From Clostridiales bacterium (lineage in GTDB: Bacteria; Bacillota; Clostridia; Monoglobales; Monoglobaceae): a stretch of DNA of 64,000 bases. Shown piece after piece: positions 21,014 through 34,640 of this stretch; the first letter of the stretch is position 1; each line of letters starts with the position of its first letter. The position numbers were made by a program, and so were the translations under genes. Where the stretch lies: assembly GCA_019419865.1 (NCBI GenBank), contig JAHZIG010000004.1:62001-126000 (forward strand). Reading direction: 5' to 3'. The notes beneath the pieces were generated by a model, which was not told where the DNA came from, did no database searches, and saw only the letters and a program-made list of their open reading frames with translations.

Positions 21014-21371
21014 TTAGACGATCCCCTTTCGGAGTTTAGATATAGCTTTCTTTTCAATTCTCGAAACGTACGACCTCGAAATATTCATCATTTTTGCAAT
21101 TTCCCGCTGAGTCAAGCAACGCCCGTCGCCGAGTCCGTAGCGCAGTATCACGATCTCTCTTTCCCTTGGATCGAGTTCGTTTTTTATATTTTCATAAAGC
21201 TTTTTGGTCTGTTCGGATAATTGAAATTCCTCAAATACGCCTTCGCCGTCGGCGCTTATTATATCCATAAGTAAAATGGCGTTGCCCTCTTTATCCGTAC
21301 CGATAGATTCGTTTAACGATACGTCATTTTGACGCTTTTTTTGGTTTCTGATAAGCATTAGGATTTCGTTT
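21014..21371 (-). CDS. sigK: RNA polymerase sigma-K, 3' part (interrupted gene)
   Basis: This is the C-terminal half of the late mother-cell sigma factor. From the core (21369-21371) it encodes NEILMLIRNQKK..., the rest of region 2, then region 4 with ILRYGLGDGRCLTQREIAKMMNISRSYVSRIEKKAISKL, which recognises the -35 element. On its own it lacks regions 1-2 and has no sensible start. An open frame upstream (to 21454) lies inside the recombinase gene and is not sigma-like. Joined to the 5' part at 34312-34640, it gives a 227-aa protein in exact frame. Bacillus names for the two halves are spoIVCB and spoIIIC. Confidence 0.92.
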
Positions 21372-23081
21372 GCTACCCCCTCGTAGCGGCTCTTCGTCGC
21401 CATTGATTTCAGGATACTCGATATTGTCTGAATCTGTGCCAAATAAATACACATGGGCGTTCTTTCCGTCCCATATTACTTTTTTCACAAAGGTACGCAA
21501 TGCCGCACGTTTTTCTTCGATATTCATTGTTCCAAATGAACCTGCAAAAGAACACAGCATATCCCGCAATACGTCAAACTCTTTATCGGACAACTGGTGA
21601 TTTTGCGTCAGGCATTTCAATTCTTCAATCCGATTCTCAATCCCTATCTTTTTCTGGTGCAATTCTTCAATTTGCTGATTAACATATTCATAGGTGGTCG
21701 TACCGTCTGATTGTGCCAATGCCGAAACCAATGCTTTAATCTGTTTTTCAACATCTGCTAATTCTTTTTTACAATTCTCAAGCTGGTTGTCATACTCCTG
21801 TCCGCTTTCGTTCATTTGCTTTTTTGCCCTTTCCAACTGGCGGATAAAGTCGGAGGAATCGTTTGACAGCTTTTTAATATGCTCACATACCAAAGCGTCT
21901 AAAATGTTCCCGTTAGGATTTTTACTGTCACAAAGCTGCATTCTGCTTTTCTCTTTGGTCTGACAAAGATAGCTGTAAATTTGTTCGCCGTCTTTGTTGA
22001 CTCGTTTTGATAACTTCGGGCGCATATAATCGCCGCACTTCCCGCAAAACAGCAAACCCGACAATAAGGCTACATTGCTCCGTGGCTTGCGGTAGGATTT
22101 GGACTTGTTCTGTCCCAGCATTTTTTGCACCTTTACCCAATCCGCCCCGCTGATGATGGGCTTGTGTTTCCCAACGGCAACAATCCATTCTTCCATATCG
22201 TTGATTTGGTTTGCCCGTCCAATGGTCTGTGATGTTTTGTTATAAGCCATAATGCCGCAGGTACCGTCAAATTCGGATTGCTCTGCATAAATTTCAATAT
22301 CTGCCTGCCGGAAATACTCCCATGCGTCCATATCAGCCGCCATGTAGACAGGATTTAGCAGAATGGATTTAATCGTAAATCTTGTAAAGTTCTTTCCGTT
22401 CTTTGTAGTGATATGGTTAACAAGCAAGTATGTTTCTGTTTTGGTAAGCGAGTTTGTCTCTAAAAACTTGCTGAAAATCAATCGAATCAGTTCTGCTTCT
22501 GGTTCGATAATATCTAATTTATATAGTGAACGTGTTTTCCCGTCCGTTGTGGTTTTTTCAACTTTCTCGCTCTTGTAGCCTGTTGGCGTGTTCCCTCCGA
22601 GCCATCTGCCGGTTTTAGCGAGTTCGTGCATATTGTCCCGTATACGCTCTGCAATCGTTTCCCGCTCCAACTGGGAAAATACAGATACCATCATCATCAT
22701 AGCCCTGCCCGTGGGACTTGTGGTATCGAAATTATCCCGAATGGAAATAAATTCAACTTTTCGTTTATCCAGTTCGTCAATGAGTTTTGCAAAATCGCCT
22801 GTGTTACGGCTGATACGGTCTAACCGATAACAGATGATAGTACGGATATTTCCCTCACGCACCTTTTTCATCATGTTAATAAACTGCGGTCTTTGCGTGT
22901 TACCGCCGGAAAAACCCTCGTCTTCATAAATATAAATATCGTCCCCGCCAATCTCGGGGAAATGAAGCGCAATGTACTGACGGCACAACTCAATCTGATT
23001 TTCGATACTTTCACCCTTGCCTGTAAATTTGGATTTTCGGGAGTATATCGCCACACTCCTTTTCTCTTGATTACTTGCCAT
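21324..23081 (-). CDS. Large serine recombinase of the sigK intervening element (SpoIVCA type)
   Basis: Site-specific recombinase of 585 aa in the integrated state. The resolvase domain has the catalytic Ser17 in VAIYSRKS, plus RTIICYRLDRISRN and REGNIRT. A recombinase domain follows (GGNTPTGYKSE...TRFTIKSILLNPVYM), then a zinc ribbon (LLFCGKCGDYM ... YLCQ ... C) and a coiled coil (QLENCKKELADVEKQIKALV). The ATG at 23081 has GGAGG upstream. It reads in the same direction as sigK, and its last 16 codons cross the attachment core and overlap the sigK 3' part in another frame. Its position makes it the enzyme that excises the element to rebuild sigK. Large serine recombinases usually need a directionality factor to excise. 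Confidence 0.9.
   Translation of the reverse strand: MASNQEKRSVAIYSRKSKFTGKGESIENQIELCRQYIALHFPEIGGDDIYIYEDEGFSGGNTQRPQFINMMKKVREGNIRTIICYRLDRISRNTGDFAKLIDELDKRKVEFISIRDNFDTTSPTGRAMMMMVSVFSQLERETIAERIRDNMHELAKTGRWLGGNTPTGYKSEKVEKTTTDGKTRSLYKLDIIEPEAELIRLIFSKFLETNSLTKTETYLLVNHITTKNGKNFTRFTIKSILLNPVYMAADMDAWEYFRQADIEIYAEQSEFDGTCGIMAYNKTSQTIGRANQINDMEEWIVAVGKHKPIISGADWVKVQKMLGQNKSKSYRKPRSNVALLSGLLFCGKCGDYMRPKLSKRVNKDGEQIYSYLCQTKEKSRMQLCDSKNPNGNILDALVCEHIKKLSNDSSDFIRQLERAKKQMNESGQEYDNQLENCKKELADVEKQIKALVSALAQSDGTTTYEYVNQQIEELHQKKIGIENRIEELKCLTQNHQLSDKEFDVLRDMLCSFAGSFGTMNIEEKRAALRTFVKKVIWDGKNAHVYLFGTDSDNIEYPEINGDEEPLRGGSKRNPNAYQKPKKASK
21369..21371 (-). other. Attachment core at the sigK 3' part
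   Basis: The AAA core (TTT on the plus strand) lies in context GTAGC-AAA-CGAAATC on the minus strand. With the core at 34312-34314, exchange here restores codons V-E-N-E-I of sigK. The core is inferred from alignment of the two sigK halves. The exact cut dinucleotide is not known. Confidence 0.75.
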
Positions 23082-23116
23082 ATTGCTTCCTCCAAATATA
23101 ATCACTATTTTTATAA

Positions 23117-23129
23117 CACTATCATAGTG
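23117..23129. promoter_or_regulatory. Palindrome downstream of the recombinase promoter
   Basis: CACTAT-C-ATAGTG is a perfect 6-bp inverted repeat in the leader just after the predicted start of recombinase transcription. It may be an operator for one of the element's HTH proteins. Confidence 0.5.
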
Positions 23130-23140
23130 GCTCTATTTAT

Positions 23141-23169
23141 ATTATAGCAAATAATCTGAGAAAAAGCAA
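23141..23169 (-). promoter_or_regulatory. Sigma-A-like promoter of the recombinase
   Basis: Minus-strand TTGCTT (23164-23169), a 17-bp spacer and TATAAT (23141-23146). It looks vegetative and not SigE-like, so cell-type control of excision may rest on another factor. Confidence 0.65.
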
Positions 23170-23191
23170 AAACTTTTTTGCGAATTCGCAT

Positions 23192-23228
23192 AAAAAATGC
23201 CATGAGAACGGTTTGAATTCTCATGGCA
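23192..23228 (-). terminator. Terminator of the reverse transcriptase gene
   Basis: TGCCATGAGAA (23198-23208) pairs with TTCTCATGGCA (23218-23228), followed on the minus strand by TTTTTTATG. It separates the reverse transcriptase transcript from the recombinase. Confidence 0.9.
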
Positions 23229-23239
23229 AGTATAAAAAA

Positions 23240-24751
23240 CTATGATATACTGTTGTCAAAAGGCTTAATAAATGTTATATGTTTTCTCTTTAAGTTTTTC
23301 CATTCATTTTTTAATTTGCTTTGCGGTAAGACTTCATAAATAAACAACCAATTTCTATTAAAATCACTCTCATTTTTTGAAAGATTTTCAGCATGTTCCT
23401 TATATTTTTTAATATCCGTTCTGTTATCTGTATGAATCGCTGACAAATAGGCAAGCAAAAGAAAAATACAACTATTACTTTTTAAAACATCCTCTATTTT
23501 TACATTATCAAGTTTAAATTTATACTTCAAGCTAAAATATACGGCATAACTTGTAGCTTCATAATTTTGTGTTCTTATTCCATTATTATAAATCATTTGT
23601 GAAATATCAGAAATTTCTGATATTGATACATGAAATGGTGCAAACACATACTCATCCAATAAAGGTATTAAATAAGGATATAGCAATAATAAATGGAAAA
23701 TAGTTTTCACACAATAATTTTTAGCGTTAGATGTTAATTTCTGTTTTCCAAGCACCTTTATTGCATAGTTCAGTATAGCTGAATTCTTTTTATTCTCTTG
23801 CATTAATTCTATTGCTAAGTCTAAATATGCTCTCACTTCTTTGTAATTTAGGTATTCCTTATCTCTAAATATAGAAAATGCATTTATTCTCCGTACCCAT
23901 TGTTCTACAGCCGCTTTTGGCAATTCAACTACTTCTGTCTTTTTATGATTAAGCGTCAACCCATATGCACGTAACTGCTCAGACAATTCCAGTAAAAACG
24001 ATTGTGTATCTTCATATGCAGAAACATAACATGTGTAATCATCAATATTTCTTATATAATCCCACTTCGTACTTAGTTGTGAATCAATTTTAGTTAATAT
24101 TATTTCGGACAATAGATTTGAAGTATGAGGACCTATCAGCAAACCATGAGTTTCGCCATTTGTTGTATTTCGGGTATAGAAATCAATTTGATTATACCAT
24201 AACCTCTCATCTCTTTGATTGTTTTTTGCCTCTTGTTCACCAACCAATGCCCATGCCAACGCATGAGTATATATACTAGGAAAACAGGTTGAAATATCGG
24301 CTTTAACCATATATCGTTTTCCTATTATTAAATCTTCTTCCGGAGAACCATCTATTCTGTAATTATCATAGTTCATTACAAATAAACTATTCTTATTAGC
24401 CATTTTACGAATATGTATTCTACTAACTTTATGTTTTTCATTCGCTGTCATATTTGTAAAGTGTGATTGTAATCGTTCCCAATTATCTTCTAAACATTTG
24501 CATAGTTGCTGATATGAGAACGGATTTGGTATTCCCAATGGTCTTGGAATATTAATATTACGCATATTTTCATAATAAATATATTCATTTGGCTTTTTGG
24601 CAAATTGATGATTAACACTCTTACTATAATTATAAAATTGTTCAGACGTTAAAAATGGGGGTAATTTCTCAGAAAAAAGCCCATGTGCTAATAATCCCTT
24701 ATATAATTCTTCGGAAGAAATATTATTTATCAATCTGCTATATATACTCAT
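23240..24751 (-). CDS. Abi/UG-class reverse transcriptase, candidate anti-phage protein
   Basis: 503-aa protein with a reverse transcriptase core of about residues 60-280. Visible are the motif A-type block KADISTCFPSIYTHALAWAL (Asp152), the B-type block GETHGLLIGPHTSNLLSEIIL (about 199-219), the catalytic pair in YIRNIDDYTCYV (Asp237, Asp238; Y-x-D-D variant N-I-D-D) and GLTLNHKKTEVVEL. The C-terminal 220 residues are helical and match no group II intron maturase (X, D or En) domain. This architecture is that of the Abi and 'unknown group' bacterial reverse transcriptases, several of which defend against phage. It has its own promoter and terminator. Defence is inferred from the family. A retron is unlikely because no typical retron RNA was seen. 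Confidence 0.8.
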   Translation of the reverse strand: MSIYSRLINNISSEELYKGLLAHGLFSEKLPPFLTSEQFYNYSKSVNHQFAKKPNEYIYYENMRNINIPRPLGIPNPFSYQQLCKCLEDNWERLQSHFTNMTANEKHKVSRIHIRKMANKNSLFVMNYDNYRIDGSPEEDLIIGKRYMVKADISTCFPSIYTHALAWALVGEQEAKNNQRDERLWYNQIDFYTRNTTNGETHGLLIGPHTSNLLSEIILTKIDSQLSTKWDYIRNIDDYTCYVSAYEDTQSFLLELSEQLRAYGLTLNHKKTEVVELPKAAVEQWVRRINAFSIFRDKEYLNYKEVRAYLDLAIELMQENKKNSAILNYAIKVLGKQKLTSNAKNYCVKTIFHLLLLYPYLIPLLDEYVFAPFHVSISEISDISQMIYNNGIRTQNYEATSYAVYFSLKYKFKLDNVKIEDVLKSNSCIFLLLAYLSAIHTDNRTDIKKYKEHAENLSKNESDFNRNWLFIYEVLPQSKLKNEWKNLKRKHITFIKPFDNSIS

Positions 24752-24763
24752 ATTACTAACTCC

Positions 24764-24793
24764 GCTATAATAGTTTTAAAAATATATTATAGC
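24764..24793. promoter_or_regulatory. Inverted repeat overlapping the reverse transcriptase promoter
   Basis: GCTATAATA (24764-24772) and TATTATAGC (24785-24793) form a perfect 9-bp inverted repeat that covers the -10 box, as expected for a repressor site. Confidence 0.5.
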
Positions 24794-24814
24794 AGATTTT
24801 GGATTAAAAATCAA
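24786..24814 (-). promoter_or_regulatory. Promoter of the reverse transcriptase gene
   Basis: Minus-strand TTGATT (24809-24814), a 17-bp spacer and TATAAT (24786-24791). The start codon is at 24751, so the leader is short. Confidence 0.7.
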
Positions 24815-24872
24815 TATACAGACGAATTCTGCCGCCTATATCAAAATTTGAACAATAGTGAAAATGTTGTTT

Positions 24873-25082
24873 TTACAATACCTGTTTTCTGATTTTTGCA
24901 ATCTTTCTACGACATGATTCTAATTCTACTGCAATAGAGCCATCTTCTGAATCGGGCTGAAAAAACTGTCTGAGCATTGCCAGTCCATCAGCAACCATAG
25001 CAAGATTAGCCGCTATGACTTCATCAGCAGACAGAGCTTTATTAGTTTGTGGTTTTTCAATTACTTGTATCATTTCATTCAA
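24873..25082 (-). CDS. Small helical protein, first of a related pair
   Basis: 69-aa protein MNEMIQVIEKPQTNKALS... with a helical middle (ANLAMVADGLAMLRQFF) and a basic C-terminus (CRRKIAKIRKQVL). It overlaps the 3' end of the upstream small gene by 8 bp, so the two are translationally coupled. The opening I-x-I-V-E-K-P motif and the helical spacing resemble the neighbour, suggesting an old tandem duplication. The family is not recognised. It lies between the surface operon and the reverse transcriptase and could be a small DNA-binding or directionality factor, but nothing in the sequence proves that. Confidence 0.6.
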   Translation of the reverse strand: MNEMIQVIEKPQTNKALSADEVIAANLAMVADGLAMLRQFFQPDSEDGSIAVELESCRRKIAKIRKQVL

Positions 25083-25314
25083 CAGCCTTTCTCACTTTTG
25101 GATTTGTAGATATAATGAGATTGATTTTCTCTATACAATCATTTAATACATCTGTCATTATACTTTCACTATGGAGTTCAATAACAAGATTTTTTGCTTC
25201 TATCAGACAGTCCAACGCTATTTGAAGATTTACTAATATAATGTCTGTCATATCATTTACATTAGCTGATACTTTTACCTCGACATTTTCAGGCTTTTCA
25301 ACAATAGATATCAT
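25075..25314 (-). CDS. Small helical protein, second of a related pair
   Basis: 79-aa protein MISIVEKPENVEVKVSANVNDM... followed by two predicted helices (IILVNLQIALDCLIEAKNLVIEL and VLNDCIEKINLIIS) and a basic end. A good AAGGAG ribosome binding site precedes the ATG. It resembles the following 69-aa protein in its first ten residues and in helix placement. Function unknown. It starts a two-gene unit that reads towards the reverse transcriptase, which has its own promoter. Confidence 0.6.
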   Translation of the reverse strand: MISIVEKPENVEVKVSANVNDMTDIILVNLQIALDCLIEAKNLVIELHSESIMTDVLNDCIEKINLIISTNPKVRKAVE

Positions 25315-25451
25315 TTTAACATCTCCTTCCGTTCATAACTTCATTTATTCAGGCAGAAATCATTTACATTTTTATAGAGATAATAAGAACCCGACCCGCA
25401 ACGAAATCAAAAATTACGGGCGGGTGCCCCGAAACCTTGTTGCTCCGCAAT

Positions 25452-25481
25452 AAAAAAGTGCCCTGCAACTTGGCAAGGCAC
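25452..25481 (-). terminator. Terminator of the surface-protein operon
   Basis: GTGCCCTGC (25458-25466) pairs with GCAAGGCAC (25473-25481) with one G-U pair, followed on the minus strand by TTTTTTA. Confidence 0.85.
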
Positions 25482-25558
25482 CTATCATCATGTTATTTAC
25501 GTCGATTTTGTCCTGTGGACGTTGATTTTCTATTCAGCGGGCAAGGGCAAGAATATCT

Positions 25559-27307
25559 TTAAATATTCTTTTCAAGGATTCTTAACGCTCCCATATCTAA
25601 ATCATAAAAAATCATAGTATCATCATCTACTACCAAAAAACGTTCATCAATATTATTCATGTTGCCCATATCTGCAAATTCTACATTATCTGACTTAGTA
25701 CTTATATCAAGTGTCGTGGTTTTTCCAGTCTGAACTGATATTTTGTAAATCGAGCCATCACTGTTCCAAAAATAGTAGGAGTCCCCTTTAGAGGCATAGG
25801 AATCAAACTCTAATCCTGTTGCAATCTCGATATAATCGCTTTCGTTAAAATCATACTTGTTCAAGCTATTATTTGTAAGACAGAATAAATCACTGCCAGT
25901 TTTCAGAACTTCATCACCTACACCATTGTTTATTCGTGCTTCTCCGCTTGTTATATCTAAGTCTACCCCTCTATAATGCCAAGAGTTAAGACGTAACTGT
26001 GCCTTTTGAGAGCTTAAAACAGCACCAAAACGTACACTTGCTCGACCATACTCTGTATTACCAATGTCACTAAATACATTAGCAGTTCCGTTTGTTATAT
26101 CATAGATTACATTATATATTTGGTCTTGTTCTGGTGTTTTGAATGCCTCTGTTATCGTATCATAATAACCAATAAGAAGTATTTTATTATTTACATTATC
26201 ATAATAAACTTGCACTGGAACATAAGAAGAATATTCTGCAACTGCTGAGGATTCTTCATTTTCCTGTTCTGCTGGCTTTTCTAATATCAATTCTGTTGGG
26301 TCAAAATATTTCATATTGCTTCCGTTTTCAATGTTGATTCTATAGATACAGCTATCAGAAGCATCTATATAATATATATTTTTGTCATTATCAATCGTTG
26401 CCCAGGTTAATCCGCCAGAAGTTTGTGAAGAAGAATTAAATTGTTGGCTTATGTTTATTGAAGCCAGTGTTTTCATTATGTAAGGTTTCTTTTCTTCTGG
26501 TGTATCAGTTGATTGTGGCTCTTCTGGTTTTGCCGTTTCTTCAGGTTCATTTATGGGTGTTTGCGTTGGCTCGGCAGGTTGCTCTGTAACTTGCGAGGGT
26601 GTTTGCGTAGGTGTAGTGTCATCATAAGTTTTATTGTTATTACCATACTGATATGCACGCCATAATAACGTAGCGGCTTCCGCCCGTGTAATACTCTGCT
26701 GTCCTCTGAATGTTCCATCATCATAACCAGAAATCAAGCCATTTTCAACAGCAGAAGCAACATACTTCTGTGCTTCAGAAGAAATGGATTGATAATCAGA
26801 AAACATACGAGCAAGCATTGTTATATCTGCACCTACAACGGAATATCCTTTTAATTTTACCATTGCCACGGCTATATCTTCTCGAAGTGCGGGCATATCA
26901 GGTAAATAATAACTACCACCATTTTGATTGTATGCGCTCAGATATGATTTTGCAGTATGGATATACGGCGCATACCATTCGTTGACAGCAACATCATTAA
27001 AAATCTGCATAGTAGGTTGTTCTATTTTCAATCCTGCTGCCATGGTCATAATTTTTGCAAACTCTGCTCTTGTAACCTGTGAATCAGGATAAAACTTACC
27101 GTCTGGATAACCGTTTAACACACCGCGTTCTTCCATTTCCCCAATATAAGAAAACGCCCAAAAGTCCTCTGGCACATCTGAAAACTTTTGCATATAGGTT
27201 TTTGACGGTTGATTTTTTAATTCTTCGCCATACTCAACAGCCCCAGCGCTAATTGATACGCTTAAAACCATTGTTAGCATAAGAATAATTGATATTAGTT
27301 TTTTCAT
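25559..27307 (-). CDS. S-layer homology surface protein carried by the element
   Basis: 582-aa exported protein. The signal peptide (MKKLISIILMLTMVLSVSISAGA) is followed by three S-layer homology domains (about 40-215; FSDVPEDFWAFSYI, NGYPDGKFYPDSQVTRAEFA, SGYDDGTFRGQQSITRAEAA), a Pro/Thr/Glu-rich linker (about 220-275) and a 300-aa C-terminal part rich in beta strands. That part has repeated 'NIYYIDASDSCIYRIN / YYFWNSDGSIYKIS' elements like a beta-propeller of the DUF5050 kind. It is the last gene of a four-gene operon. Wall binding is known for S-layer domains. The role of the propeller-like part is unknown. An S-layer protein is unusual cargo for a sigK element. Confidence 0.8.
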   Translation of the reverse strand: MKKLISIILMLTMVLSVSISAGAVEYGEELKNQPSKTYMQKFSDVPEDFWAFSYIGEMEERGVLNGYPDGKFYPDSQVTRAEFAKIMTMAAGLKIEQPTMQIFNDVAVNEWYAPYIHTAKSYLSAYNQNGGSYYLPDMPALREDIAVAMVKLKGYSVVGADITMLARMFSDYQSISSEAQKYVASAVENGLISGYDDGTFRGQQSITRAEAATLLWRAYQYGNNNKTYDDTTPTQTPSQVTEQPAEPTQTPINEPEETAKPEEPQSTDTPEEKKPYIMKTLASINISQQFNSSSQTSGGLTWATIDNDKNIYYIDASDSCIYRINIENGSNMKYFDPTELILEKPAEQENEESSAVAEYSSYVPVQVYYDNVNNKILLIGYYDTITEAFKTPEQDQIYNVIYDITNGTANVFSDIGNTEYGRASVRFGAVLSSQKAQLRLNSWHYRGVDLDITSGEARINNGVGDEVLKTGSDLFCLTNNSLNKYDFNESDYIEIATGLEFDSYASKGDSYYFWNSDGSIYKISVQTGKTTTLDISTKSDNVEFADMGNMNNIDERFLVVDDDTMIFYDLDMGALRILEKNI

Positions 27308-27332
27308 AGTGATACCTCCATTTTTCGTTTTG

Positions 27333-28436
27333 TTAATTTTTAAGCGGACTTACTGCAAATAACTGAAATGTTGCTGGGTCTCCCTGTCTATCTTCCGGCT
27401 CGTGAGACAATCGAAATGTCTGTCCGGGTTTTAATGTTATTTTAGTATTTGCACCGGCGCTCGATTTCTTTGAATTTGTTTCAATATAGACAAAATCATA
27501 ACTCATAGAAAAATGCTCACACTTTACAATATAAATACCTGCTGGCACATCTATCCCTGCTGTGTAATTACCCTCGCTTAGATCATATTTTTCTATTTCC
27601 GTAAGTTTCAATTCAGCAAGGTTATCTTCTAAAGAAGAGCCTCTGAAAAACAATGTAGTACCATCAGCTAAAAATCTTATACAATCCTCTCCTTTTCTAT
27701 ACTTTGAACCAGGTCCCATAATTTTGCCATCAACTGGATTGCTGCCATAAATAGTGCACTCTCCGCTAGTGGAAGTTACAAGGTAATATCCCTCTGGAAT
27801 ACTTTCTCCGATTTTTACCGGAGTTGCCTCTTGTTGCTTACATAATTCAGCATCTTCTTTAAAAACATAGGACTTTTTTTCTTTTACATATGTCCATTGT
27901 TTGCTGCCTACATTAGAATTAGTATTTTTTGAGGAATTTGGTTCCGTTTTCTCTATAGTTTTATCTACCGCAATATTATTATCAGTTTTGGTTATATTAT
28001 TATTTGAATAATTATTGAAATTTGTAAAAATTCCAATCGCAACTACTGCAATTATGCCTATAGCAATTACTGCACGATACCGTTTTAGTTTTGCAAACAG
28101 CCCTGTACGCTTTTCGAACTCCGAATTTTCTATCTTTTTATCAATTTCCATTTCTTTAACGGAATTCGCAGCAGATGATACAGTTTCCTTTGTTTTCTCA
28201 ACCGCAGTTTTAGCGTGTTTTTCAACATTGTCATTCAAATCTGCTAATTTTTTATCTAACTCCATTTCCTTTACTTTTTCAGCAGTAGCAGACATCGTTT
28301 TCTGAGTTTGTTCTTTCAGATTATCTAATTTTTTGTCTAATTCCATATCTTGCAATTTATCCTGTGCTATATTTTTTGCATTCTGTAATTTCTCTTTTGC
28401 CTTATCAGCATATCTCTTAAAATCATCATTTTTCAT
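27333..28436 (-). CDS. Coiled-coil, single-pass membrane protein with two 'PAGxY' modules
   Basis: 367 aa. Residues 1-110 form an amphipathic coiled coil with three similar repeats around 'MELDKKLDNL', 'MELDKKLADL' and 'MEIDKKIENS'. One transmembrane segment lies near 120-138 (VIAIGIIAVVAIGIFT). Then come an Asn/Thr-rich spacer and an outer domain with two related beta modules (IPEGYYLVTSTSGECTIYG and VPAGIYIVKCEHFSM). Such modules occur in many Gram-positive exported proteins of unknown function. It sits 25 bp before the S-layer protein gene, so both products probably act at the cell envelope. The N-terminus faces the cytoplasm if the positive-inside rule holds. Confidence 0.65.
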   Translation of the reverse strand: MKNDDFKRYADKAKEKLQNAKNIAQDKLQDMELDKKLDNLKEQTQKTMSATAEKVKEMELDKKLADLNDNVEKHAKTAVEKTKETVSSAANSVKEMEIDKKIENSEFEKRTGLFAKLKRYRAVIAIGIIAVVAIGIFTNFNNYSNNNITKTDNNIAVDKTIEKTEPNSSKNTNSNVGSKQWTYVKEKKSYVFKEDAELCKQQEATPVKIGESIPEGYYLVTSTSGECTIYGSNPVDGKIMGPGSKYRKGEDCIRFLADGTTLFFRGSSLEDNLAELKLTEIEKYDLSEGNYTAGIDVPAGIYIVKCEHFSMSYDFVYIETNSKKSSAGANTKITLKPGQTFRLSHEPEDRQGDPATFQLFAVSPLKN

Positions 28437-28450
28437 TGATAGCTATCCCC

Positions 28451-28615
28451 CTAAATTGTTTTCTTTCGTGTATGACCGCATGATAGACAACGGTCATATT
28501 TAAATTGCTGATTTCTACACCCATCACGAGTACAACCAATTTTGCCGCATTTTTCGCATTTCCAAAGCTGAGAATAGCATTTTCCAAACCCTTTGTTTTC
28601 GTTACAATTTGCCAT
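28451..28615 (-). CDS. 54-aa zinc-ribbon protein
   Basis: A short gene that starts at 28615 (MANCNENKGF) and stops at 28451. It holds three Cys pairs or singles: CEKCGKIGC, DGC and CLSCGH, typical of a small zinc ribbon. It overlaps the upstream zinc-ribbon gene by 14 bp and ends 15 bp before the coiled-coil protein gene, so it sits inside the operon. Function unknown. Possibly a nucleic-acid-binding or chaperone-like zinc protein. Confidence 0.65.
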   Translation of the reverse strand: MANCNENKGFGKCYSQLWKCEKCGKIGCTRDGCRNQQFKYDRCLSCGHTRKKTI

Positions 28616-28910
28616 TTACATCATTCCTTTCGTTACTCATATCTCTATACTCATGCCGTACTACCGTTTCTCCACATCGTTTGCATAGGTAGGTTACTTC
28701 ATAATAAGTACGGATAACGGGAATACTTCTATCATATCTACATTTTAGCAATTTGCGTTTTTCCACCATCATATTGCAACTCCCTGTTTCCTCTCGTTTC
28801 ACTTCTGATAGAGAACACCATGACTTACACCGTGGGCATTCAATATCAAAAATCTTTGGTACTGCATGGAGTGCAACAAGACCAAGAATGGCTATTGTGC
28901 TTGATTTCAT
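28602..28910 (-). CDS. Zinc-ribbon protein, first gene of the surface operon
   Basis: 102-aa protein with a short hydrophobic N-terminus (TIAILGLVALHAVP), then two CxxC pairs (IECPRCKSWC and YLCKRCGETV) about 45 residues apart, making one probable zinc ribbon, and a charged tail. It begins a minus-strand operon of four genes and is divergent from the HTH regulator at 29117, with about 200 bp between them that contains an inverted repeat. The family is not recognised. The hydrophobic start could anchor it in the membrane. Confidence 0.6.
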   Translation of the reverse strand: MKSSTIAILGLVALHAVPKIFDIECPRCKSWCSLSEVKREETGSCNMMVEKRKLLKCRYDRSIPVIRTYYEVTYLCKRCGETVVRHEYRDMSNERNDVNGKL

Positions 28911-29054
28911 GCGAATTCACCTCCTTCAAGAAATGAATTCGTGTAGCAATTACGTTTTCCTGCTTTTACCAGATGTTATTTTATAAAAGATAAAAACACG
29001 TAATCACAGTACCATTATAATGTACTTCTATTACATTGTCAAGTTATAACATCT

Positions 29055-29076
29055 AAATGATAAAGAAATATCATTT
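29055..29076. promoter_or_regulatory. Probable operator between the HTH gene and the surface operon
   Basis: AAATGATA and TATCATTT form a perfect 8-bp inverted repeat with a 6-bp gap. A TTGTCA/GATAAA promoter-like pair reads rightwards across it. This is the expected site for the divergent HTH regulator. Confidence 0.55.
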
Positions 29077-29116
29077 TGACTATAGTAAAATTATTACATA
29101 GAGATGAGGTGATGTC

Positions 29117-29428
29117 ATGGCAAAGGAATTGTTTCTATTAGCCGAAAAAATCAAAACCATTCGTGAACAACTGGGAATGACACAAGCGGAACTCGCTCGA
29201 AAACTGGGATTGACCCGCTCCAGTATAAACGGTTGGGAAATGGGCTTGTCTGTTCCATCTACTCAATATATAGTTGAATTGGCGAAACTGTTTCGTGTAT
29301 CTACCGATTATCTGCTCGGCATGGAACAAGGAGCGGTATTAAATATAGATGATTTAACCGAAAAGGAAGTATCTGTTTTACTTGACGTAGCAAACTGTTT
29401 TCGTGCAAGACATACAAATGATGAATAA
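29117..29428 (+). CDS. XRE/Cro-type transcriptional regulator
   Basis: 103-aa protein with one helix-turn-helix domain at about residues 10-65 (IKTIREQLGMTQAELARKLGLTRSSINGWEMGLSVPS) and a short acidic tail. It resembles repressors of phage and integrative elements. The ATG has GAGGTG upstream. It is divergent from the zinc-ribbon/S-layer operon and separated from it by an inverted repeat, so it probably represses that operon and itself. Confidence 0.85.
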   Translation: MAKELFLLAEKIKTIREQLGMTQAELARKLGLTRSSINGWEMGLSVPSTQYIVELAKLFRVSTDYLLGMEQGAVLNIDDLTEKEVSVLLDVANCFRARHTNDE

Positions 29429-29548
29429 CCTTTATTTTGTCCTCTAAACCGTCTACCACTTATATACGGCAACCTGCCCGATGAAATAGATTACAACGGT
29501 TTAACGTCCTCTTAACACGTCAAGAGCAGGACAATACATAGGCATAAG

Positions 29549-29578
29549 AAAACGCCTCACAATGAAGTGGGGCGTTTT
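29549..29578. terminator. Bidirectional terminator
   Basis: AAAACGCCTCAC (29549-29560) pairs with GTGGGGCGTTTT (29567-29578). It lies between the converging HTH and DUF6076-like genes. Confidence 0.85.
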
Positions 29579-29579
29579 A

Positions 29580-30737
29580 CTATTTATACTGGCTTTTTGG
29601 TTTTTTATATTGCTGTTTTCTTGCTTTCGTATTATCTTTGACTTCTTCCCAATATATATCCATCCAGTTTATATATTCTTGTTCTGTTATTTTCTCTTTG
29701 GCAACTAAAGAACGTTTCTTTTTAGCTTGTTGCTTGAAGTTTTCAAGGTCTTTTTCACGTCTGTTTAATTCTCTTTGAGTAATGTAAGTTCCGCTTATTC
29801 GATTAGATAACATTGTATAGATGGTTTTATATTTTCGTCTACTTGCTTTAGACCTATCCCCGGATAATTTTTGTTCATGTTTTACCTGGAGCTTACAAGT
29901 TCTATTATAATTTTCTGGGCTGGGATTTTCACAATATTTTTGTTTTGCATTCATTGCTACAAAATAATTATTACAATGTTGACACACTTTGATATGATAC
30001 CTATCATAAAATATTTCCTGTAGTGAAGCAAACAATAATTCTTCAATGCTATTTATATGGTAACTGACATTACACAAATATTCTGATTGATCAGAAGTTT
30101 TTTCTAACTTATCACATAATTGTGATTGGTTGTATTTTCTGATTTCTGAAAATTGTATGCTTTTAAAACCATTTAATTGAACGCCAAGAATGCTTGAAAC
30201 ACTATACAAAGTATTCATAGTGCAATATTTATTTTCCGAAACACAAATTTTTATAAAATTTACACAATTCTCCATTCTGCTATATATATCTAAGCGTTTC
30301 GGCATATCTCTGTGGGGAGGATTATTCGAAAATAAAAGTTGTTTTACAACACAAAAGGTTAAAAAATACAATATATCCTTGTTCAAAGGAAAATGTTGTT
30401 TTTTAAAAAAGTGTTCTGTAAATAAACATTTATCTACATTTTGAAAAGGAAAATTATCATACTCATGTTCAAAAACTTCAAAACAAAGTTCATAAGCAGC
30501 ACTTTGATTTGCTCTTATAAAGCCAATCATAGCTGGTACTAAATGCATACAAGCTGAAAGAATTGTTCCAATAGGATAAGTTGTGTCTTTAAACTCAATA
30601 CCAGTTTTATCAGCCATATATGAAAAGTACATTTCTATTTCTTCCGATGGTACATCATCAGGAATAACCACCAAATTTTCTCTATTATTAATTCTATCTA
30701 CAACGTAATATAATTGCTTTTCTTGCATAAATCTCAC
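29580..30737 (-). CDS. DUF6076-like zinc protein of mobile elements
   Basis: 385-aa protein, mostly helical, with a C-terminal zinc-finger-like stretch (Cys252, Cys255, Cys269, Cys281: VCQHCNNYFVA ... QKYCE ... RTC) followed by a very basic helical region. The pattern recalls the DUF6076 family found in Firmicutes integrative elements, whose function is not known. The Cys-rich part and basic tail suggest nucleic acid binding. It is transcribed alone, away from the replication module. The family name is given from memory of the C-terminal motif and could be wrong. Confidence 0.6.
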   Translation of the reverse strand: MRFMQEKQLYYVVDRINNRENLVVIPDDVPSEEIEMYFSYMADKTGIEFKDTTYPIGTILSACMHLVPAMIGFIRANQSAAYELCFEVFEHEYDNFPFQNVDKCLFTEHFFKKQHFPLNKDILYFLTFCVVKQLLFSNNPPHRDMPKRLDIYSRMENCVNFIKICVSENKYCTMNTLYSVSSILGVQLNGFKSIQFSEIRKYNQSQLCDKLEKTSDQSEYLCNVSYHINSIEELLFASLQEIFYDRYHIKVCQHCNNYFVAMNAKQKYCENPSPENYNRTCKLQVKHEQKLSGDRSKASRRKYKTIYTMLSNRISGTYITQRELNRREKDLENFKQQAKKKRSLVAKEKITEQEYINWMDIYWEEVKDNTKARKQQYKKPKSQYK

Positions 30738-30953
30738 CTCAAAATTTCATTGTTCCCCTTATAATTATAATATAAAAGCGAATAACTGTCAATAGTAAGT
30801 CGATTAAGTGTATGCTATACTAATTCCAGAATCGATTCAAACCTTTACGGTAAGTGCTTATCGTTAAAAGAAACGGAGGTATGTGGTATAAACAACTATT
30901 TTTGTGAAAGCAAGTATCTATCTGTATCAGCAATTTTATAGGAGGATTTTAAA

Positions 30954-31172
30954 ATGAGTAAAAACTTTGAGTTTTACAACTATTCAGACGAAAGATCTGA
31001 TGAGCTTGAATTTTCAAAAATGCTTAGGATAGAGATGAAAGTGATGGATTTCTTCGTTAAAGAAGCACAAGATGCATTGACAAATCATGAAATTTCTTTA
31101 GCAGATGAAATGCTATCATTTATTAAAGAAGTCATTAAACGAGACATGGAGATCATAGAATCTTCCCTATAA
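30954..31172 (+). CDS. 72-aa acidic helical protein
   Basis: Small, strongly charged protein (MSKNFEFYNYSDERSDELEFSKMLRIEMKVMDFFVKEAQ...) predicted to form two helices. AGGAGG lies 9 nt before the ATG. It is the first gene of the rightward replication module, before the hairpin region and the primase gene. The family is not recognised. It is one of several small proteins here that could act as the excision (directionality) factor or as a replication accessory. Confidence 0.55.
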   Translation: MSKNFEFYNYSDERSDELEFSKMLRIEMKVMDFFVKEAQDALTNHEISLADEMLSFIKEVIKRDMEIIESSL

Positions 31173-31192
31173 TTTCTATATTTTAAAATCAA

Positions 31193-31242
31193 GGCTCTGC
31201 TATAAGGAGCCGATTGTTCTTTGACAACTGAATAGCAGAGCC
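31193..31242 (+). promoter_or_regulatory. Alternative hairpins before the primase gene
   Basis: GGCTCTGCTA (31193-31202) pairs with TAGCAGAGCC (31233-31242). Alternatively its first five bases pair with GAGCC at 31207-31211. An inner TTGT/ACAA pair lies between. Only one long hairpin can form at a time, which suggests attenuation. A replication-origin role is also possible. Confidence 0.5.
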
Positions 31243-31257
31243 AGAAAGAGGTGTATC

Positions 31258-32685
31258 ATGACGCAAGATGAAATCATGCGGTCAAAATGGGTGGCAAGGA
31301 ATGCAGACGGTAAGGTATATATCGTAACGCAGGAGCTTTATAAATATCTCCACGATTTTGTCCATCTAATTACAACAGATAGCGGTAACATATACCTTTA
31401 TGACGGCAGCGGGGTTTGGAAACGAATTACACCCAACACATGCAAAGGTATCATCAAAGAGTTTCTCCCCATTAGATATCGAACGTATAGGCATTGGAAT
31501 TCCATTTTTGAGGAATTTATGACGGATTTGTCTGATGTTGAAGAAAAAGACTTCAACTCCGACGAAAACATCATTAACTTCCAAAACGGAATTCTGGATT
31601 TGAGGACAATGGAATTAAATCCACACAGTCCAAAGTGCCTATCAACAATTCAAATACCTTGTGCATACAATCCAGATTTAACTTGGGATAATGCACCGGT
31701 ATTCAAGAAGTATCTGACGGATTTACTTGGTGATGATGAAGTTACTAAAGTATTTTTACTGGAATTCCTCGGTGCTATTATTTCCAATATCTATGGCTGG
31801 CGATACAAGAAAATGTTGCTTATGGTTGGTGATGGAAACACAGGCAAGTCAGTTCTTCGAGAATTGGCAATGCACTTGGTAGGATTGGATAATTGTGTAT
31901 CAATCGAGCTAAAAAGGCTTGGCGAACGGTTTGGCAGTTCTGCCCTATACGGAAAGCGCTGCTCAGGCAGTGGAGATCTCGGATTTGTTGAGTTACCAGA
32001 AGTTAACATTATCAAGCAACTAACTGGCGGAGATGAATTATACGCTGAGTTTAAAGGTAAAGATAGCTTCACCTTTAGATATGACGGTTTTTTATGGTGT
32101 AACTGCAATCGTTTACCATATTTCCGTTCAGACCGTGGGCAATGGGTGTATAACCGTTTCTGCATTGTGAGATGTGATAATGTCATTCCACCAGAAAGGC
32201 AGGATAAACAGCTAATCGACAAGCTGATAGCTGAAAAAGAAGCTATCGTAAATATAGCACTTCAACACTTCCGCAAGACAATCGAGCGTGGTTATCGTTT
32301 TACCGAAAGCGAAAGCATGAGGATAGAACGAGAACGGTACACCATTGAAAATAATTCGTTATTAACATTTGTTAAGGAGCGTTGCATACTGTTGAAAGGC
32401 TATACAAAACGTTCAGAATTTAACGAATCATATGTAAAATGGTGTCAGCAAAATCTTGTTAAACCAGAACGTCAACGAGATGTTGGTCGTCAACTGGAAG
32501 AAACATTTGGCATTACAGCTACTAAGAGAAACGGTTATTTTATATATAATCTAAGCATTCCCGATGAAGATTATGAAGCTATGGCAGAATACAGTTATAA
32601 TCAACTAAAAGCCATCACGAAAAGCAAAGAAAATCAAAACAACTCCTCGGGTTCTAACGAACCCTCAGAGGGAAAAGAGCGGTAA
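31258..32685 (+). CDS. P4-type primase-helicase C-terminal protein
   Basis: 475-aa replication protein of the phage/plasmid primase P4 family. It has a D5_N-like region (about 60-170; NIINFQNGILDLRTMEL) and a superfamily 3 helicase core with Walker A GDGNTGKS at 191-198, Walker B-like SGDLGFVELPEVN and FLWCNCNRLPYF. A winged-helix-like tail follows. The N-terminal primase domain of full-length members is missing or very short. Such proteins start replication of plasmids and satellite phages, so the excised circle may replicate. A ribosome binding site (AAGAGGTG) precedes the ATG. Confidence 0.85.
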   Translation: MTQDEIMRSKWVARNADGKVYIVTQELYKYLHDFVHLITTDSGNIYLYDGSGVWKRITPNTCKGIIKEFLPIRYRTYRHWNSIFEEFMTDLSDVEEKDFNSDENIINFQNGILDLRTMELNPHSPKCLSTIQIPCAYNPDLTWDNAPVFKKYLTDLLGDDEVTKVFLLEFLGAIISNIYGWRYKKMLLMVGDGNTGKSVLRELAMHLVGLDNCVSIELKRLGERFGSSALYGKRCSGSGDLGFVELPEVNIIKQLTGGDELYAEFKGKDSFTFRYDGFLWCNCNRLPYFRSDRGQWVYNRFCIVRCDNVIPPERQDKQLIDKLIAEKEAIVNIALQHFRKTIERGYRFTESESMRIERERYTIENNSLLTFVKERCILLKGYTKRSEFNESYVKWCQQNLVKPERQRDVGRQLEETFGITATKRNGYFIYNLSIPDEDYEAMAEYSYNQLKAITKSKENQNNSSGSNEPSEGKER

Positions 32686-32807
32686 CAAAGACACAAGGGC
32701 GTAAAGGGCGAGTGTAACAGACTTTGGAACGAGTTTTGAAAAAGCTGAAGCGAAAAGATGACAGAACTCGCCCCAACGCCCCTAACACAAAGAAAGGCGG
32801 AATTAAC

Positions 32808-33080
32808 ATGCCAATAACAGTATTGGGAAAAAAGAGCGTCAACGGTATAAGTCAAAAAACAGGAAATCGCTATCAGGGTACAATCATTCAGTATTCCTAT
32901 GATGATGCCAATAGTGAACGTGGTAAATCCGTTGGTTCAGCTTATGTTAGTGAGATACTGCATTTTGGGGACAACATCAACATTTTTAGTGATTACGAAT
33001 TAGAATTAGACCCAGTTAAAAAATATGCTACACGATTTGAACTTGTGGAACTGGATAGCTATTTTAAACAATTAAAATAA
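32808..33080 (+). CDS. 90-aa protein of the replication module
   Basis: Starts at the ATG at 32808 (MPITVLGKKSVNGISQKTGN) with AAAGGCGGA upstream. An in-frame start 28 codons earlier lacks a ribosome binding site. The protein is beta-rich with no membrane segment. Similar small proteins follow replication genes in Firmicutes conjugative and integrative elements, where single-strand binding or relaxosome roles have been guessed. The family is not certain. It is followed 16 bp later by another small gene. Confidence 0.6.
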   Translation: MPITVLGKKSVNGISQKTGNRYQGTIIQYSYDDANSERGKSVGSAYVSEILHFGDNINIFSDYELELDPVKKYATRFELVELDSYFKQLK

Positions 33081-33096
33081 AAAGGAGGTAATTATC

Positions 33097-33354
33097 TTGA
33101 AGAAAACAGTGCAAATTAAAGTACTCAATGCTGAGGTCAGAACGAAAGGTCGCAGACATGATAATATTATAACATTTAAAAAATTCCCTTTTGGAATTAA
33201 AAAGCGCACAACCTGGGTAGGTGGTTATGTCATCCGCCCCGTTGAACTTGTTGTTGGTGGAATCTATTGCTTTGAGTATGCACCATCTGGGCATATCAGT
33301 AAGATGGAACTTCTCGAAAAAAGAAATCGGAAGACTTCTTTTTGGCAGTCATAA
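33097..33354 (+). CDS. 85-aa basic protein of the replication module
   Basis: TTG start at 33097 with a strong AAAGGAGGT. The protein is basic and beta-rich (QIKVLNAEVRTKGRRHDN, YVIRPVELVVGGIYCFEY) and looks like a small nucleic-acid-binding barrel. It lies 16 bp after the 90-aa gene, in the same transcript. The family is not recognised. The TTG start and short length make it easy to miss, but the ribosome binding site and operon spacing support it. Confidence 0.6.
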   Translation: MKKTVQIKVLNAEVRTKGRRHDNIITFKKFPFGIKKRTTWVGGYVIRPVELVVGGIYCFEYAPSGHISKMELLEKRNRKTSFWQS

Positions 33355-33457
33355 ATGATATTGTAAACGGGATAAATGAGGTCTTTGTTTAAACTGACAT
33401 ATGGTACAAGTTATCTTGAATATAAATAACATAGCAAGAAAGGGGGTAGAGCCAATT

Positions 33458-33640
33458 TTGGAAGTGATTGTTCACTACCCTAAACAAGAATCAGATAAAC
33501 AAGCCTTGCGGCAAAAAGTATCCGAAGTTCAAGCCGAGGCAGTCACAAAATACATTTCAAAATTGACTTGCCCCCTTGAACAAAAACGAAAACTGGTGCA
33601 AGCCATCCAAGAGAAAACGAGAAACGGTCAGAAAAATTGA
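33458..33640 (+). CDS. 60-aa protein common near element recombinases
   Basis: Chosen start TTG at 33458 (M-E-V-I-V-H-Y-P-K), preceded by AAGGGGGT. An open frame extends 19 codons upstream from an ATG without a ribosome binding site. It has a 'VIVHYPK' strand and then helices with KLTCPLEQKRKLVQAIQEK. Short proteins with this layout occur beside recombinases in Firmicutes elements, so it is a candidate directionality factor. Its last codons overlap the terminator hairpin. Confidence 0.55.
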   Translation: MEVIVHYPKQESDKQALRQKVSEVQAEAVTKYISKLTCPLEQKRKLVQAIQEKTRNGQKN

Positions 33641-33656
33641 CCGTTTCTTTTTCTAT
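33621..33656 (+). terminator. Terminator of the replication module
   Basis: GAAACGGTCA (33621-33630) pairs perfectly with TGACCGTTTC (33638-33647), followed by TTTTTC. Confidence 0.9.
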
Positions 33657-33678
33657 TTTCGGCTATTATATAAACTTT

Positions 33679-34227
33679 TTATAAATTAGCCGAAGTTTTG
33701 ACATTGAGTTTTAACAATTTCTCCCATGTTCCCTTAAACATACGCACCTTATCCTGCTCCCAGCGTTTGACCTTGTATAAATCAACATTCATCATAGCGG
33801 CAAGCTGTTTCTGTGTGATATGCAAACGTTTGCGAATAGCTTTTATCTGCTGACCTTGCCCGTCATACAGAAAACGATTGTAATCGTCCAGCAGTTCATA
33901 GACGTCAATGTGATACAACGCCGCCAGCTTATCCACCATAGCGGCTGGGTAAAAATCCCGTTGGTTATCTTCATAATCGCCATACGTCCCTCTATCCATT
34001 CCGATATACGCCGCAACGTCCTTTTGGTGCATGGCTTTTTGATAGCGGTAGTATTTCAGCTTGTCCGATATATTGGTAATATCCGCCGGATTGGTATAGA
34101 GCAGATTGAACTTTTCACCCTCTCTATTGGTGGACGGTTTCAGTAGTCGAATGGTATGGATATACATGGGCATGAAAATCGTTCCGTTTGCCCGATGGCT
34201 GTACAACAGATACATTTGACCGTTCAT
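33679..34227 (-). CDS. Double helix-turn-helix protein at the element end
   Basis: 182-aa protein. An N-terminal 60-residue beta-rich part (MNGQMYLLYSHRANGTIFMP) is followed by two XRE-type helix-turn-helix domains (about 65-115, YRYQKAMHQKDVAAYIGMDRGTYGDYE; and about 130-175, IRKRLHITQKQLAAMMNVDLYKVKRWE). No good ribosome binding site precedes the ATG. The frame is open upstream to the attachment core. On an excised circle it would be joined in frame to the recombinase. It may control the element's promoters or bind its ends. Confidence 0.75.
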   Translation of the reverse strand: MNGQMYLLYSHRANGTIFMPMYIHTIRLLKPSTNREGEKFNLLYTNPADITNISDKLKYYRYQKAMHQKDVAAYIGMDRGTYGDYEDNQRDFYPAAMVDKLAALYHIDVYELLDDYNRFLYDGQGQQIKAIRKRLHITQKQLAAMMNVDLYKVKRWEQDKVRMFKGTWEKLLKLNVKTSANL

Positions 34228-34311
34228 TTTGGTTAAAATCCGCCAGTTTCTAAAATAGGGGGCTGAATTTCCCTCTTTTTGTTCAAAAAGAGCCGCTGCG
34301 AGCGTATTGTT

Positions 34312-34314
34312 TTT
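34312..34314 (-). other. Attachment core at the sigK 5' part
   Basis: The AAA core lies in a run of six A, context GTTGA-AAA-AACAATAC on the minus strand. It is the partner of the core at 21369-21371. Because of the A run, the exchange point is fixed mainly by the need to restore V-E-N-E-I in sigK. Confidence 0.75.
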
Positions 34315-34640
34315 TCAACGCATCTTGCCGCATACGTGGCGAGCCGCGTTCCTTTCGACGGATCGAAACTGTTGATCCCCTTTATCAATCCTATGGTTCC
34401 TATCGAGATCAAATCCTCGCTGTCCCTTGTGGACTGAGAATATTTTTTCGCTATATGCGCGACCAATCTCAAGTTGTGCTCTATCAGTTTGTTTCCGGCT
34501 TCAACGCTGCCGTTCATAAATTCGTCGATGCATTTCTTTTCCTCCTCCGGCGGCAGCGGTTTGGGGAACGAGTTGTTGTTCGATATATATGAGAGCAGCG
34601 CGACGAGAGATTGAAGCAACGCGTCGAAAAAAAATAACAT
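34312..34640 (-). CDS. sigK: RNA polymerase sigma-K, 5' part (interrupted gene)
   Basis: Codes for the N-terminal 109 residues of sigma-K. A hydrophobic pro-sequence (MLFFFDALLQSLVALLSYIS) is followed by FPKPLPPEEEKK and the core-binding and -10 recognition region 2 (LIEHNLRLVAHIAKKYS, DLISIGTIGLIKGINSFDPSKGTRLATYAARCVE). In the integrated state the frame runs on for 26 element-coded codons to a stop at 34233, giving a truncated product. GGAGGT precedes the ATG. The pro-sequence implies removal by SpoIVFB, as in Bacillus; C. difficile sigma-K is recalled to lack one. Confidence 0.93.

What the first reader, a model, noticed from the sequence alone, without database searches (positions are those of the whole stretch)
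21014..34640. sigK is split by a 12.9 kb recombinase-bearing element (skin-like)
The two sigma-K halves lie on the same strand with a large serine recombinase between them, next to the 3' half. Joining them at a shared AAA core gives 684 nt, exactly 228 codons, and the sequence ATYAARCVE-NEILMLIR, the canonical region 2 seen unbroken in sigE. sigK interruption with excision during sporulation is known in Bacillus subtilis and Clostridioides difficile. The content here differs from both as far as I recall.
Basis: partly seen in the sequence, partly recalled or inferred. Interest (0 to 1): 0.9.

Follow-up and report, generated by a model that had tools for sequence, protein, structure and literature searches.

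The report
Split sigK gene with excisable element
A bacterium, probably from an animal gut, has its late spore-making gene sigK cut in two by a mobile DNA element that must cut itself out exactly for the gene to work; related bacteria carry similar elements at the same spot, some only two genes long.

Summary
Confirmed. sigK (minus strand) is split into 34640-34314 and 21370-21014 by a 12,943-bp element with a large serine recombinase (LSR) beside the 3' half. A close relative, Candidatus Roslinia caecavium (92-93% DNA identity on both flanks), has exactly the predicted joined gene: a natural empty site. Of 391 sampled Clostridia genomes, 39 hold this LSR at E<=1e-100; in 25 it lies beside a sigK half. 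Seventeen bounded elements of 1.6-27.2 kb share an AA core in the same codons. Five hold little but the LSR and a 62-82-aa protein; relatives of that protein occur in 16 of 18 elements tested, the window's included, making it my candidate excision factor. Split sigK is under strong purifying selection where both genomes compared carry the element. In the excised circle the LSR would read in frame through attP into a double-HTH protein; one natural protein, P0075, has this make-up. Cargo includes a DRT4-like reverse transcriptase. Excision was not observed. Verdict: skin-like, new variant.

The parts
34314..34640 (-). sigK 5' half, 109 codons
   Evidence: TIGR02846 E 1.4e-46; join; 100 of these codons compared with L005
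21014..21370 (-). sigK 3' half from the core AA to the stop
   Evidence: NF004471 E 1.6e-43; joined gene intact in L005
21371..34313 (.). sigK-intervening element, 12,943 bp (one core copy counted)
   Evidence: absent from L005, where the two flank matches meet inside sigK
34288..34313 (-). attL side: core AA 34313-34312 and inverted-repeat arm 34288-34302
21369..21394 (-). attR side: core AA 21370-21369 and inverted-repeat arm 21380-21394
21324..23081 (-). large serine recombinase, 585 aa; its last codons after the core are host sigK DNA read in another frame
   Evidence: PF00239, PF07508, PF13408; tail; start codon by inspection
33679..34227 (-). double-HTH protein, 182 aa, directly behind the sigK 5' half; in frame with the LSR in the circle
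   Evidence: HTH_3, HTH_19, HTH_31
33458..33640 (+). 60-aa protein (ORF opens at 33401), candidate recombination directionality factor
   Evidence: E 8.7e-6 to an HMM of five small proteins from two-gene elements; alignment A1; 59 relatives
31258..32685 (+). P4-type primase/helicase
   Evidence: TIGR01613 E 7e-47, over cut-off; PHROG 864
29580..30737 (-). DUF6076 protein
   Evidence: PF19553 E 7.3e-13
29117..29428 (+). repressor-like HTH protein, 92% identical in G032
25559..27307 (-). SLH-domain protein
   Evidence: PF00395 E 2.5e-29
24873..25314 (-). pair of small ORFs (79 and 69 aa) shared with G032 at 82% DNA identity
   Evidence: no Pfam match
23240..24751 (-). DRT4-like reverse transcriptase (anti-phage cargo)
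   Evidence: PADLOC Drt4 E 2.4e-219; NCBIfam Drt4 419 bits, below its cut-off of 450

Best explanation
A site-specific mobile element entered sigK by attP x attB recombination at an AA core in the codons for E-N-E of sigma region 2. Its LSR, with a directionality factor that is most likely the 60-aa protein at 33458-33640, later recombines attL with attR, which releases a 12.9-kb circle and rebuilds a 227-codon sigK. By analogy with B. subtilis and C. difficile this should happen in the mother cell during sporulation, while the spore keeps the element. Shown here: the structure, the exact empty site in a close relative, sibling elements at the same codons, selection on split sigK. Inferred: excision, its timing, and which protein is the directionality factor.
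For: Joined frame of 227 aa. Intact sigK with the predicted joint in L005, both flanks collinear. LSR domains complete and paired inverted att arms. Same codons and AA at both ends in 17 of 17 bounded elements. LSR beside a sigK half in 25 of 39 genomes that hold it at E<=1e-100. 13 of 13 split genomes showed no other SigK at E<=1e-15. dN/dS of the halves 0-0.077 in the five pairs of carriers where both halves gave a value.
Against: No excision product of the window's own element was seen, and its genome could not be searched. The insertion could be recent, so selection in window against L005 (28 silent, 3 replacement changes in 215 codons) may mostly predate it. The small-protein family was not found in 2 of 18 elements (G228, G080), nor in the partly held sigK elements of G066 and G081 (L151, L147). 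No sigma-E-type promoter was convincingly found.
Confidence: 0.87

Rival explanations
1. The HTH protein, not the 60-aa protein, is the key partner, through an integration-dependent switch: attP lies inside one gene for an LSR fused to a double-HTH regulator. Integration cuts that gene as well as sigK; the integrated state makes a free LSR and puts the HTH protein behind the sigK 5' half, in reach of the sigK promoter. Excision fuses the two again. The HTH part would act as trigger, excision partner or lock.
For: In-frame reading of 202-216 codons beyond attP in window, G032, G336 and G174; natural protein P0075 of the same make-up; alignable peptide across the junction.
Against: Six of the eleven elements in which the reading could be tested stop within 15 codons of attP, and the two-gene forms have no HTH gene. 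In the search with the tail of P0075 no second fusion was found among 573 candidates. P0075 could be a lasting fusion and not a circle.
Confidence: 0.25
2. The insertion is a dead end: sigK is simply broken and the host no longer makes spores by sigma-K.
For: No excision was seen; the window's genome cannot be searched for other losses.
Against: Both halves are open, the LSR and att sites look complete; carriers keep both sigK halves under strong purifying selection; SpoIIID-like, SigE and SpoIIGA-like ORFs are still in the window.
Confidence: 0.06
3. It is mainly a mobile defence island or phage satellite that uses sigK as a harmless dock, and excision serves its own spread and is not tied to sporulation.
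For: P4-type primase, repressor-like HTH proteins, DRT4-like cargo; a sibling has a phage-type replication protein instead; modules shared with G032 at 82-87% DNA identity while the sigK halves are 68-69% identical as proteins.
Against: Among the ten element ORFs scanned against PHROGs none matched a structural or packaging family. Some two-gene forms look vertically kept with their hosts. It is compatible with the best explanation.
Confidence: 0.25

Closest known systems
skinCd of Clostridioides difficile (PMC5025042; abstract, passages and one methods section read)
   Same: Element in sigK with an LSR and a small directionality factor (CD1231 and CD1234, 72 aa).
   Different: [quoted passage not shown] 14.6 kb (PMC10745906 passage). 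The window's SigK has an N-terminal extension that I read as a pro-sequence (recalled criterion). LSR and small protein were not compared with CD1231 and CD1234.
skin of Bacillus subtilis (PMC10745906 passages)
   Same: sigK split and rebuilt by a recombinase encoded in the element; short core (AATGA), which from recall lies in the same E-N-E codons.
   Different: 48 kb, phage-like, recombinase gene beside the 5' half and facing it; here 12.9 kb, LSR beside the 3' half and co-directed.
gin element in gerE of Bacillus cereus ATCC10987 (PMC5595907; abstract and outline seen)
   Same: Gene-intervening element without phage genes, excised in sporulation by a recombinase plus an extra factor.
   Different: Other target gene; three recombinase genes.
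Integration-dependent immunity of mycobacteriophage BPs (PMC4557955; abstract and outline seen)
   Same: attP inside a regulator gene, so that integration changes the protein made.
   Different: There attP shortens a phage repressor; here it would separate a serine recombinase from an HTH protein in an element lodged in a sporulation gene.
sigK prophages of Clostridium tetani and Alicyclobacillus (PMC5553647, PMC13141910; passages read)
   Same: Integration in sigK.
   Different: Those are prophages with structural genes; none was matched in the window's element.

Membership tests
sigK-intervening (skin-like) element | Interrupts the sigK coding sequence, halves on one strand | tested here: met
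sigK-intervening (skin-like) element | Encodes its own site-specific recombinase between the halves | tested here: met
sigK-intervening (skin-like) element | Removal at the core restores an in-frame sigK, and an empty site exists | tested here: met
sigK-intervening (skin-like) element | Excised during sporulation in the mother cell | not testable with these tools
   needs sporulating cells
sigK-intervening (skin-like) element | Homology to skin of B. subtilis or C. difficile | not tested
   those elements were not at hand by name
Prophage | Structural or packaging genes | tested here: not met
   none among ten element ORFs scanned with PHROGs or those scanned with Pfam
Large serine recombinase | Resolvase + Recombinase + zinc-ribbon domains | tested here: met
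   PF00239, PF07508, PF13408 over cut-off
DRT4 reverse transcriptase | Match to Drt4 models | tested here: inconclusive
   PADLOC E 2.4e-219, but NCBIfam Drt4 419.2 bits, below its cut-off of 450
Recombination directionality factor | Small protein regularly present with its LSR | tested here: met
   16 of 18 sigK elements; only companion gene of the LSR in the two-gene forms
Recombination directionality factor | Needed for attL x attR, not for attP x attB | not testable with these tools
   needs an assay
Integration-dependent switch | attP lies inside a coding frame that integration splits | tested here: met
   in silico; P0075 natural
Integration-dependent switch | The two protein forms act differently | not testable with these tools
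   needs an assay

The most novel reading that the evidence does not exclude
The E-N-E codons of sigK are a standing dock for LSR elements across Clostridia. In some lineages the element has shrunk to a self-removing insert of about 1.64 kb with two genes (directionality factor and LSR) that is inherited with the host and serves as an obligate DNA switch for sigma-K. In others, as in the window, it stays mobile with defence cargo and carries a mirror-image switch: attP lies inside an LSR-HTH gene, so each recombination event splits one gene and mends the other.
Probability: 0.5. Interest if true: 0.82.

Novelty: new variant of a known kind. Interest (0 to 1): 0.66.

Why it matters
A 2013 paper (PMC3789822, passages read) says that among Clostridia a skin element in sigK is found only in C. 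difficile strains; C. tetani prophages and a C. perfringens phage are described elsewhere (PMC5553647, PMC13141910, passages). Here one LSR family alone lies beside a sigK half in 25 of 391 sampled Clostridia genomes. By letter-identical small protein these include cultured species such as Ruminiclostridium cellulolyticum, R. hungatei and Lutispora thermophila. The two-gene forms make it directly testable whether DNA rearrangement can be a permanent step of a developmental pathway, and offer compact recombinase and partner pairs for study.

Tried and rejected
Viral contigs: LSR, P0075, HTH protein and primase gave no relative. Phage records: no DNA match and only LSRs below 60% identity. Rfam at gathering threshold and ARAGORN: nothing in the window. 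The pair at 24873-25314 was my first directionality candidate because G032 shares it; I dropped it when the two-gene elements pointed to the 60-aa protein. A loose sigma-E motif scan gave a few matches that I did not use. Two earlier runs of the circle reading placed the junction off by some bases and showed G032 and G336 stopping at attP, in which both ends read AA in 17 of 17, replaces them. Six of the 17 rows do not bear on the fusion: in G332, G223 and G398 the LSR stop lies before the junction, G228 and G080 have the LSR reversed, and the G019 row is a failed frame pick (its LSR lies 1.1 kb from the 3' half). A single-sequence model of the 60-aa protein is a two-helix hairpin of middling confidence (pLDDT 74.2); no fold search was run. 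G242 (a 34-residue SigK match about 1 kb from the LSR) was left out of the count of 25.
Full report
What is there. On the minus strand, 34640-34314 encodes the first 109 codons of SigK and 21370-21014 the rest; 12,943 bp lie between. Joined, they give 227 aa and a stop. A spoIIID-like ORF (36984-37433), a sigE-like ORF (59203-59931) and a spoIIGA-like ORF (59928-60893) lie in the same window (named by recall from their sequences, not scanned). The element is richer in A+T than its flanks. Its genes, from the sigK 5' side: double-HTH protein, 60-aa protein on the other strand, small ORFs, P4-type primase, DUF6076 protein, repressor-like HTH protein, 102- and 367-aa proteins, SLH protein, a pair of 79 and 69 aa, DRT4-like reverse transcriptase, LSR.

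Empty site. A search of the genome collection with the joined SigK found Candidatus Roslinia caecavium (chicken MAG, L005) at 99% over all 227 residues. Its DNA matches the window on both sides, 92.3% over 10.4 kb and 93.2% over 7.2 kb, and the two matches meet within sigK. The sequence at the joint is the predicted one. All 79 loci returned by that search have one continuous SigK match; the search keeps the best matches and so favours intact genes.

Siblings. No whole genome is held for the window. Of 51 genomes in the order of L005's genome, 4 hold the LSR at E<=1e-60, and 2 of these, G032 and G019, have split sigK. Of 391 genomes sampled across the class, 39 hold it at E<=1e-100, G032 and G019 among them. 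In 25 of the 39 the LSR lies beside a sigK half: within 0.1 kb in 24, and 1.1 kb away in G019. In 20 it is beside the 3' half and co-directed; in 5 (G080, G081, G158, G228, G342) it is beside the 5' half and faces it. For G347 the 3' half was read from the DNA, since the contig ends there. The other 14 have other or undetermined sites; in four of them an ABC-transporter-like frame follows the LSR (recalled motif). A tree of 47 LSRs puts the window with ten other sigK LSRs and one of unknown site (12 rows, support 98/93); ten more co-directed sigK LSRs form a second group (100/98), so the sigK label needs two changes.

One site. In 17 of 17 elements whose two ends were read, AA stands at both ends in the same codons, and removal restores (V/I)-(E/D)-N-E; the joined protein was spelled out for 16. 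Sizes: 1,634, 1,638, 1,645, 1,648, 2,133, 2,681, 2,945, 4,200, 5,806, 6,595, 6,638, 10,940, 12,943, 13,865, 15,559, 16,393 and 27,235 bp. Two arm types are seen by eye, gagccg/cggctc and ttcc/ggaa; the right arm is degenerate in G071, G223 and G398.

Two-gene elements. G071, G223, G398 and G104 (about 1.64 kb) and G332 (2.1 kb) hold one ORF of 62-82 aa and the LSR, both in the direction of sigK; further ORFs there overlap these or the ends. By letter-identical small protein, G104 is Lutispora thermophila, G398 a Lutispora sp., G332 Ruminiclostridium hungatei, G183 R. cellulolyticum and G400 R. josui. An HMM of the five small proteins, built without the window, hits the window's ORF at 33401-33640 with E 8.7e-6; reversed sequences reach 0.3 at best. 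After iteration the family is found at E<1e-3 in 16 of 18 sigK elements, not in G228 and G080, and in 3 of 30 other LSR loci (L149, which is at sigK with one end only, and L092 and L093, which are not at sigK). It was not found in L151 and L147, which hold long parts of the sigK elements of G066 and G081. A profile search lists 59 proteins of 290 candidates, none with a Pfam domain. In a two-gene element there is no other candidate for a directionality factor; that step is inference.

Is split sigK still used? In 13 of 13 split genomes no full-length SigK was found besides the halves at E<=1e-15; 12 show one full-length match of 42-45% identity, which I read as SigE, and G071 shows none, so it may be incomplete. 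Between genomes that both carry elements, dN/dS of the halves is 0-0.016 (three pairs of G283, G183, G400), 0.015 and 0.040 (G071-G223) and 0.039 and 0.077 (G228-G080). In the other Lutispora-type pairs dS is partly saturated and dN is 0.03-0.09; pairs of more distant carriers, the window with G032 and with G019 among them, are saturated and say nothing. LSR dS is near sigK dS in G071-G223 (0.88 against 0.84 and 0.70) and equal or somewhat higher in the G283 set, which fits joint descent, and the neighbourhoods of L140, L142, L143 and L144 are collinear as far as the cut listing shows.

Mobile too. The window's element and that of G032 share stretches at 82-87% DNA identity while the sigK halves are 68-69% identical as proteins. 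G174 has the same backbone (HTH, primase, DUF6076, HTH, SLH, LSR) with other cargo, of which two proteins match defence models (PDC-S49 1.8e-50, AbiGii 4.9e-13). The window's own cargo is the DRT4-like reverse transcriptase.

The mirror switch. In the circle the LSR frame does not stop at attP. It runs on in frame through the HTH protein in the window (+211 codons), G032 (+207), G336 (+216) and G174 (+202), and for 53 codons into a short HTH-like ORF in G347; in G284, G400, G283, G183, G104 and G071 it stops within 15 codons; the other six rows do not bear on it. P0075 (773 aa, contig of 11,234 bp) is a natural protein of this make-up, the only one with HTH domains among the 120 listed of 7,988, and it aligns with the four through the junction. 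A search with its tail found no other among 573 candidates. So in these elements integration would cut an LSR-HTH gene and place the HTH part right behind the sigK 5' half. Four of four in frame would be about 1 in 81 by chance if independent, which related elements are not. What the HTH part does is unknown. BPs phage is a precedent for attP within a regulator gene (PMC4557955, abstract).

Literature. In the listings, and in what I read, I saw no description of two-gene sigK elements, of split sigK in Ruminiclostridium or Lutispora, or of an LSR-HTH fusion across attP. The library lacks most subscription papers, Lutispora was not a search term, and no search combined DRT4 with skin elements (one search was on DRT4 alone). 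Read as passages: PMC5025042 (also abstract and one section), PMC10745906, PMC13141910, PMC10747680, PMC5553647, PMC3533761, PMC3789822; as abstract and outline: PMC5595907, PMC4557955.

Judgement. The element itself is a new member of a known kind. The family around it, with two-gene forms and the reading frame across attP, makes it a new variant worth bench work.

Noticed in passing
L098/L099 (G019), element of 27.2 kb: The sigK element carries a run of ORFs that look like a contractile phage tail (sheath, tube, baseplate, fibre, holin, lysin by recall) with no capsid seen: tailocin-like cargo. Not scanned against libraries.
   Followed up: partly
L094, NZ_CP149669.1 2372-23986: A circular 24-kb record called a C. 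difficile plasmid consists mainly of the ethanolamine (eut) cluster plus a related LSR (38.6%): perhaps an excised chromosomal element.
   Followed up: no
L152 (G284); L157-L160 (G400, G244, G283, G183): sigK elements with cargo that looks metabolic: an alpha-galactosidase-like ORF in G284, ABC-transporter-like ORFs in the Ruminiclostridium-type elements (named by recall).
   Followed up: no
L112 3152-3244 (G244): The 3' half of sigK matches for only 31 residues beside the LSR; a second disruption or an assembly fault.
   Followed up: no
L110, L119, L125, L127: Related LSRs sit before another reading frame that looks like an ABC-transporter ATPase: a second preferred target.
   Followed up: no
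L097 7313-8278 (G032): The sibling element has a phage-type replication protein (PF23343, 2.6e-15) and no match to the window's primase, so replication modules seem to be swapped.
   Followed up: partly
window 25315-25488 and L097 11849-11955: The leader upstream of the 79/69-aa pair is unusually conserved with G032, 97.5% over 40 bp in one block.
   Followed up: no
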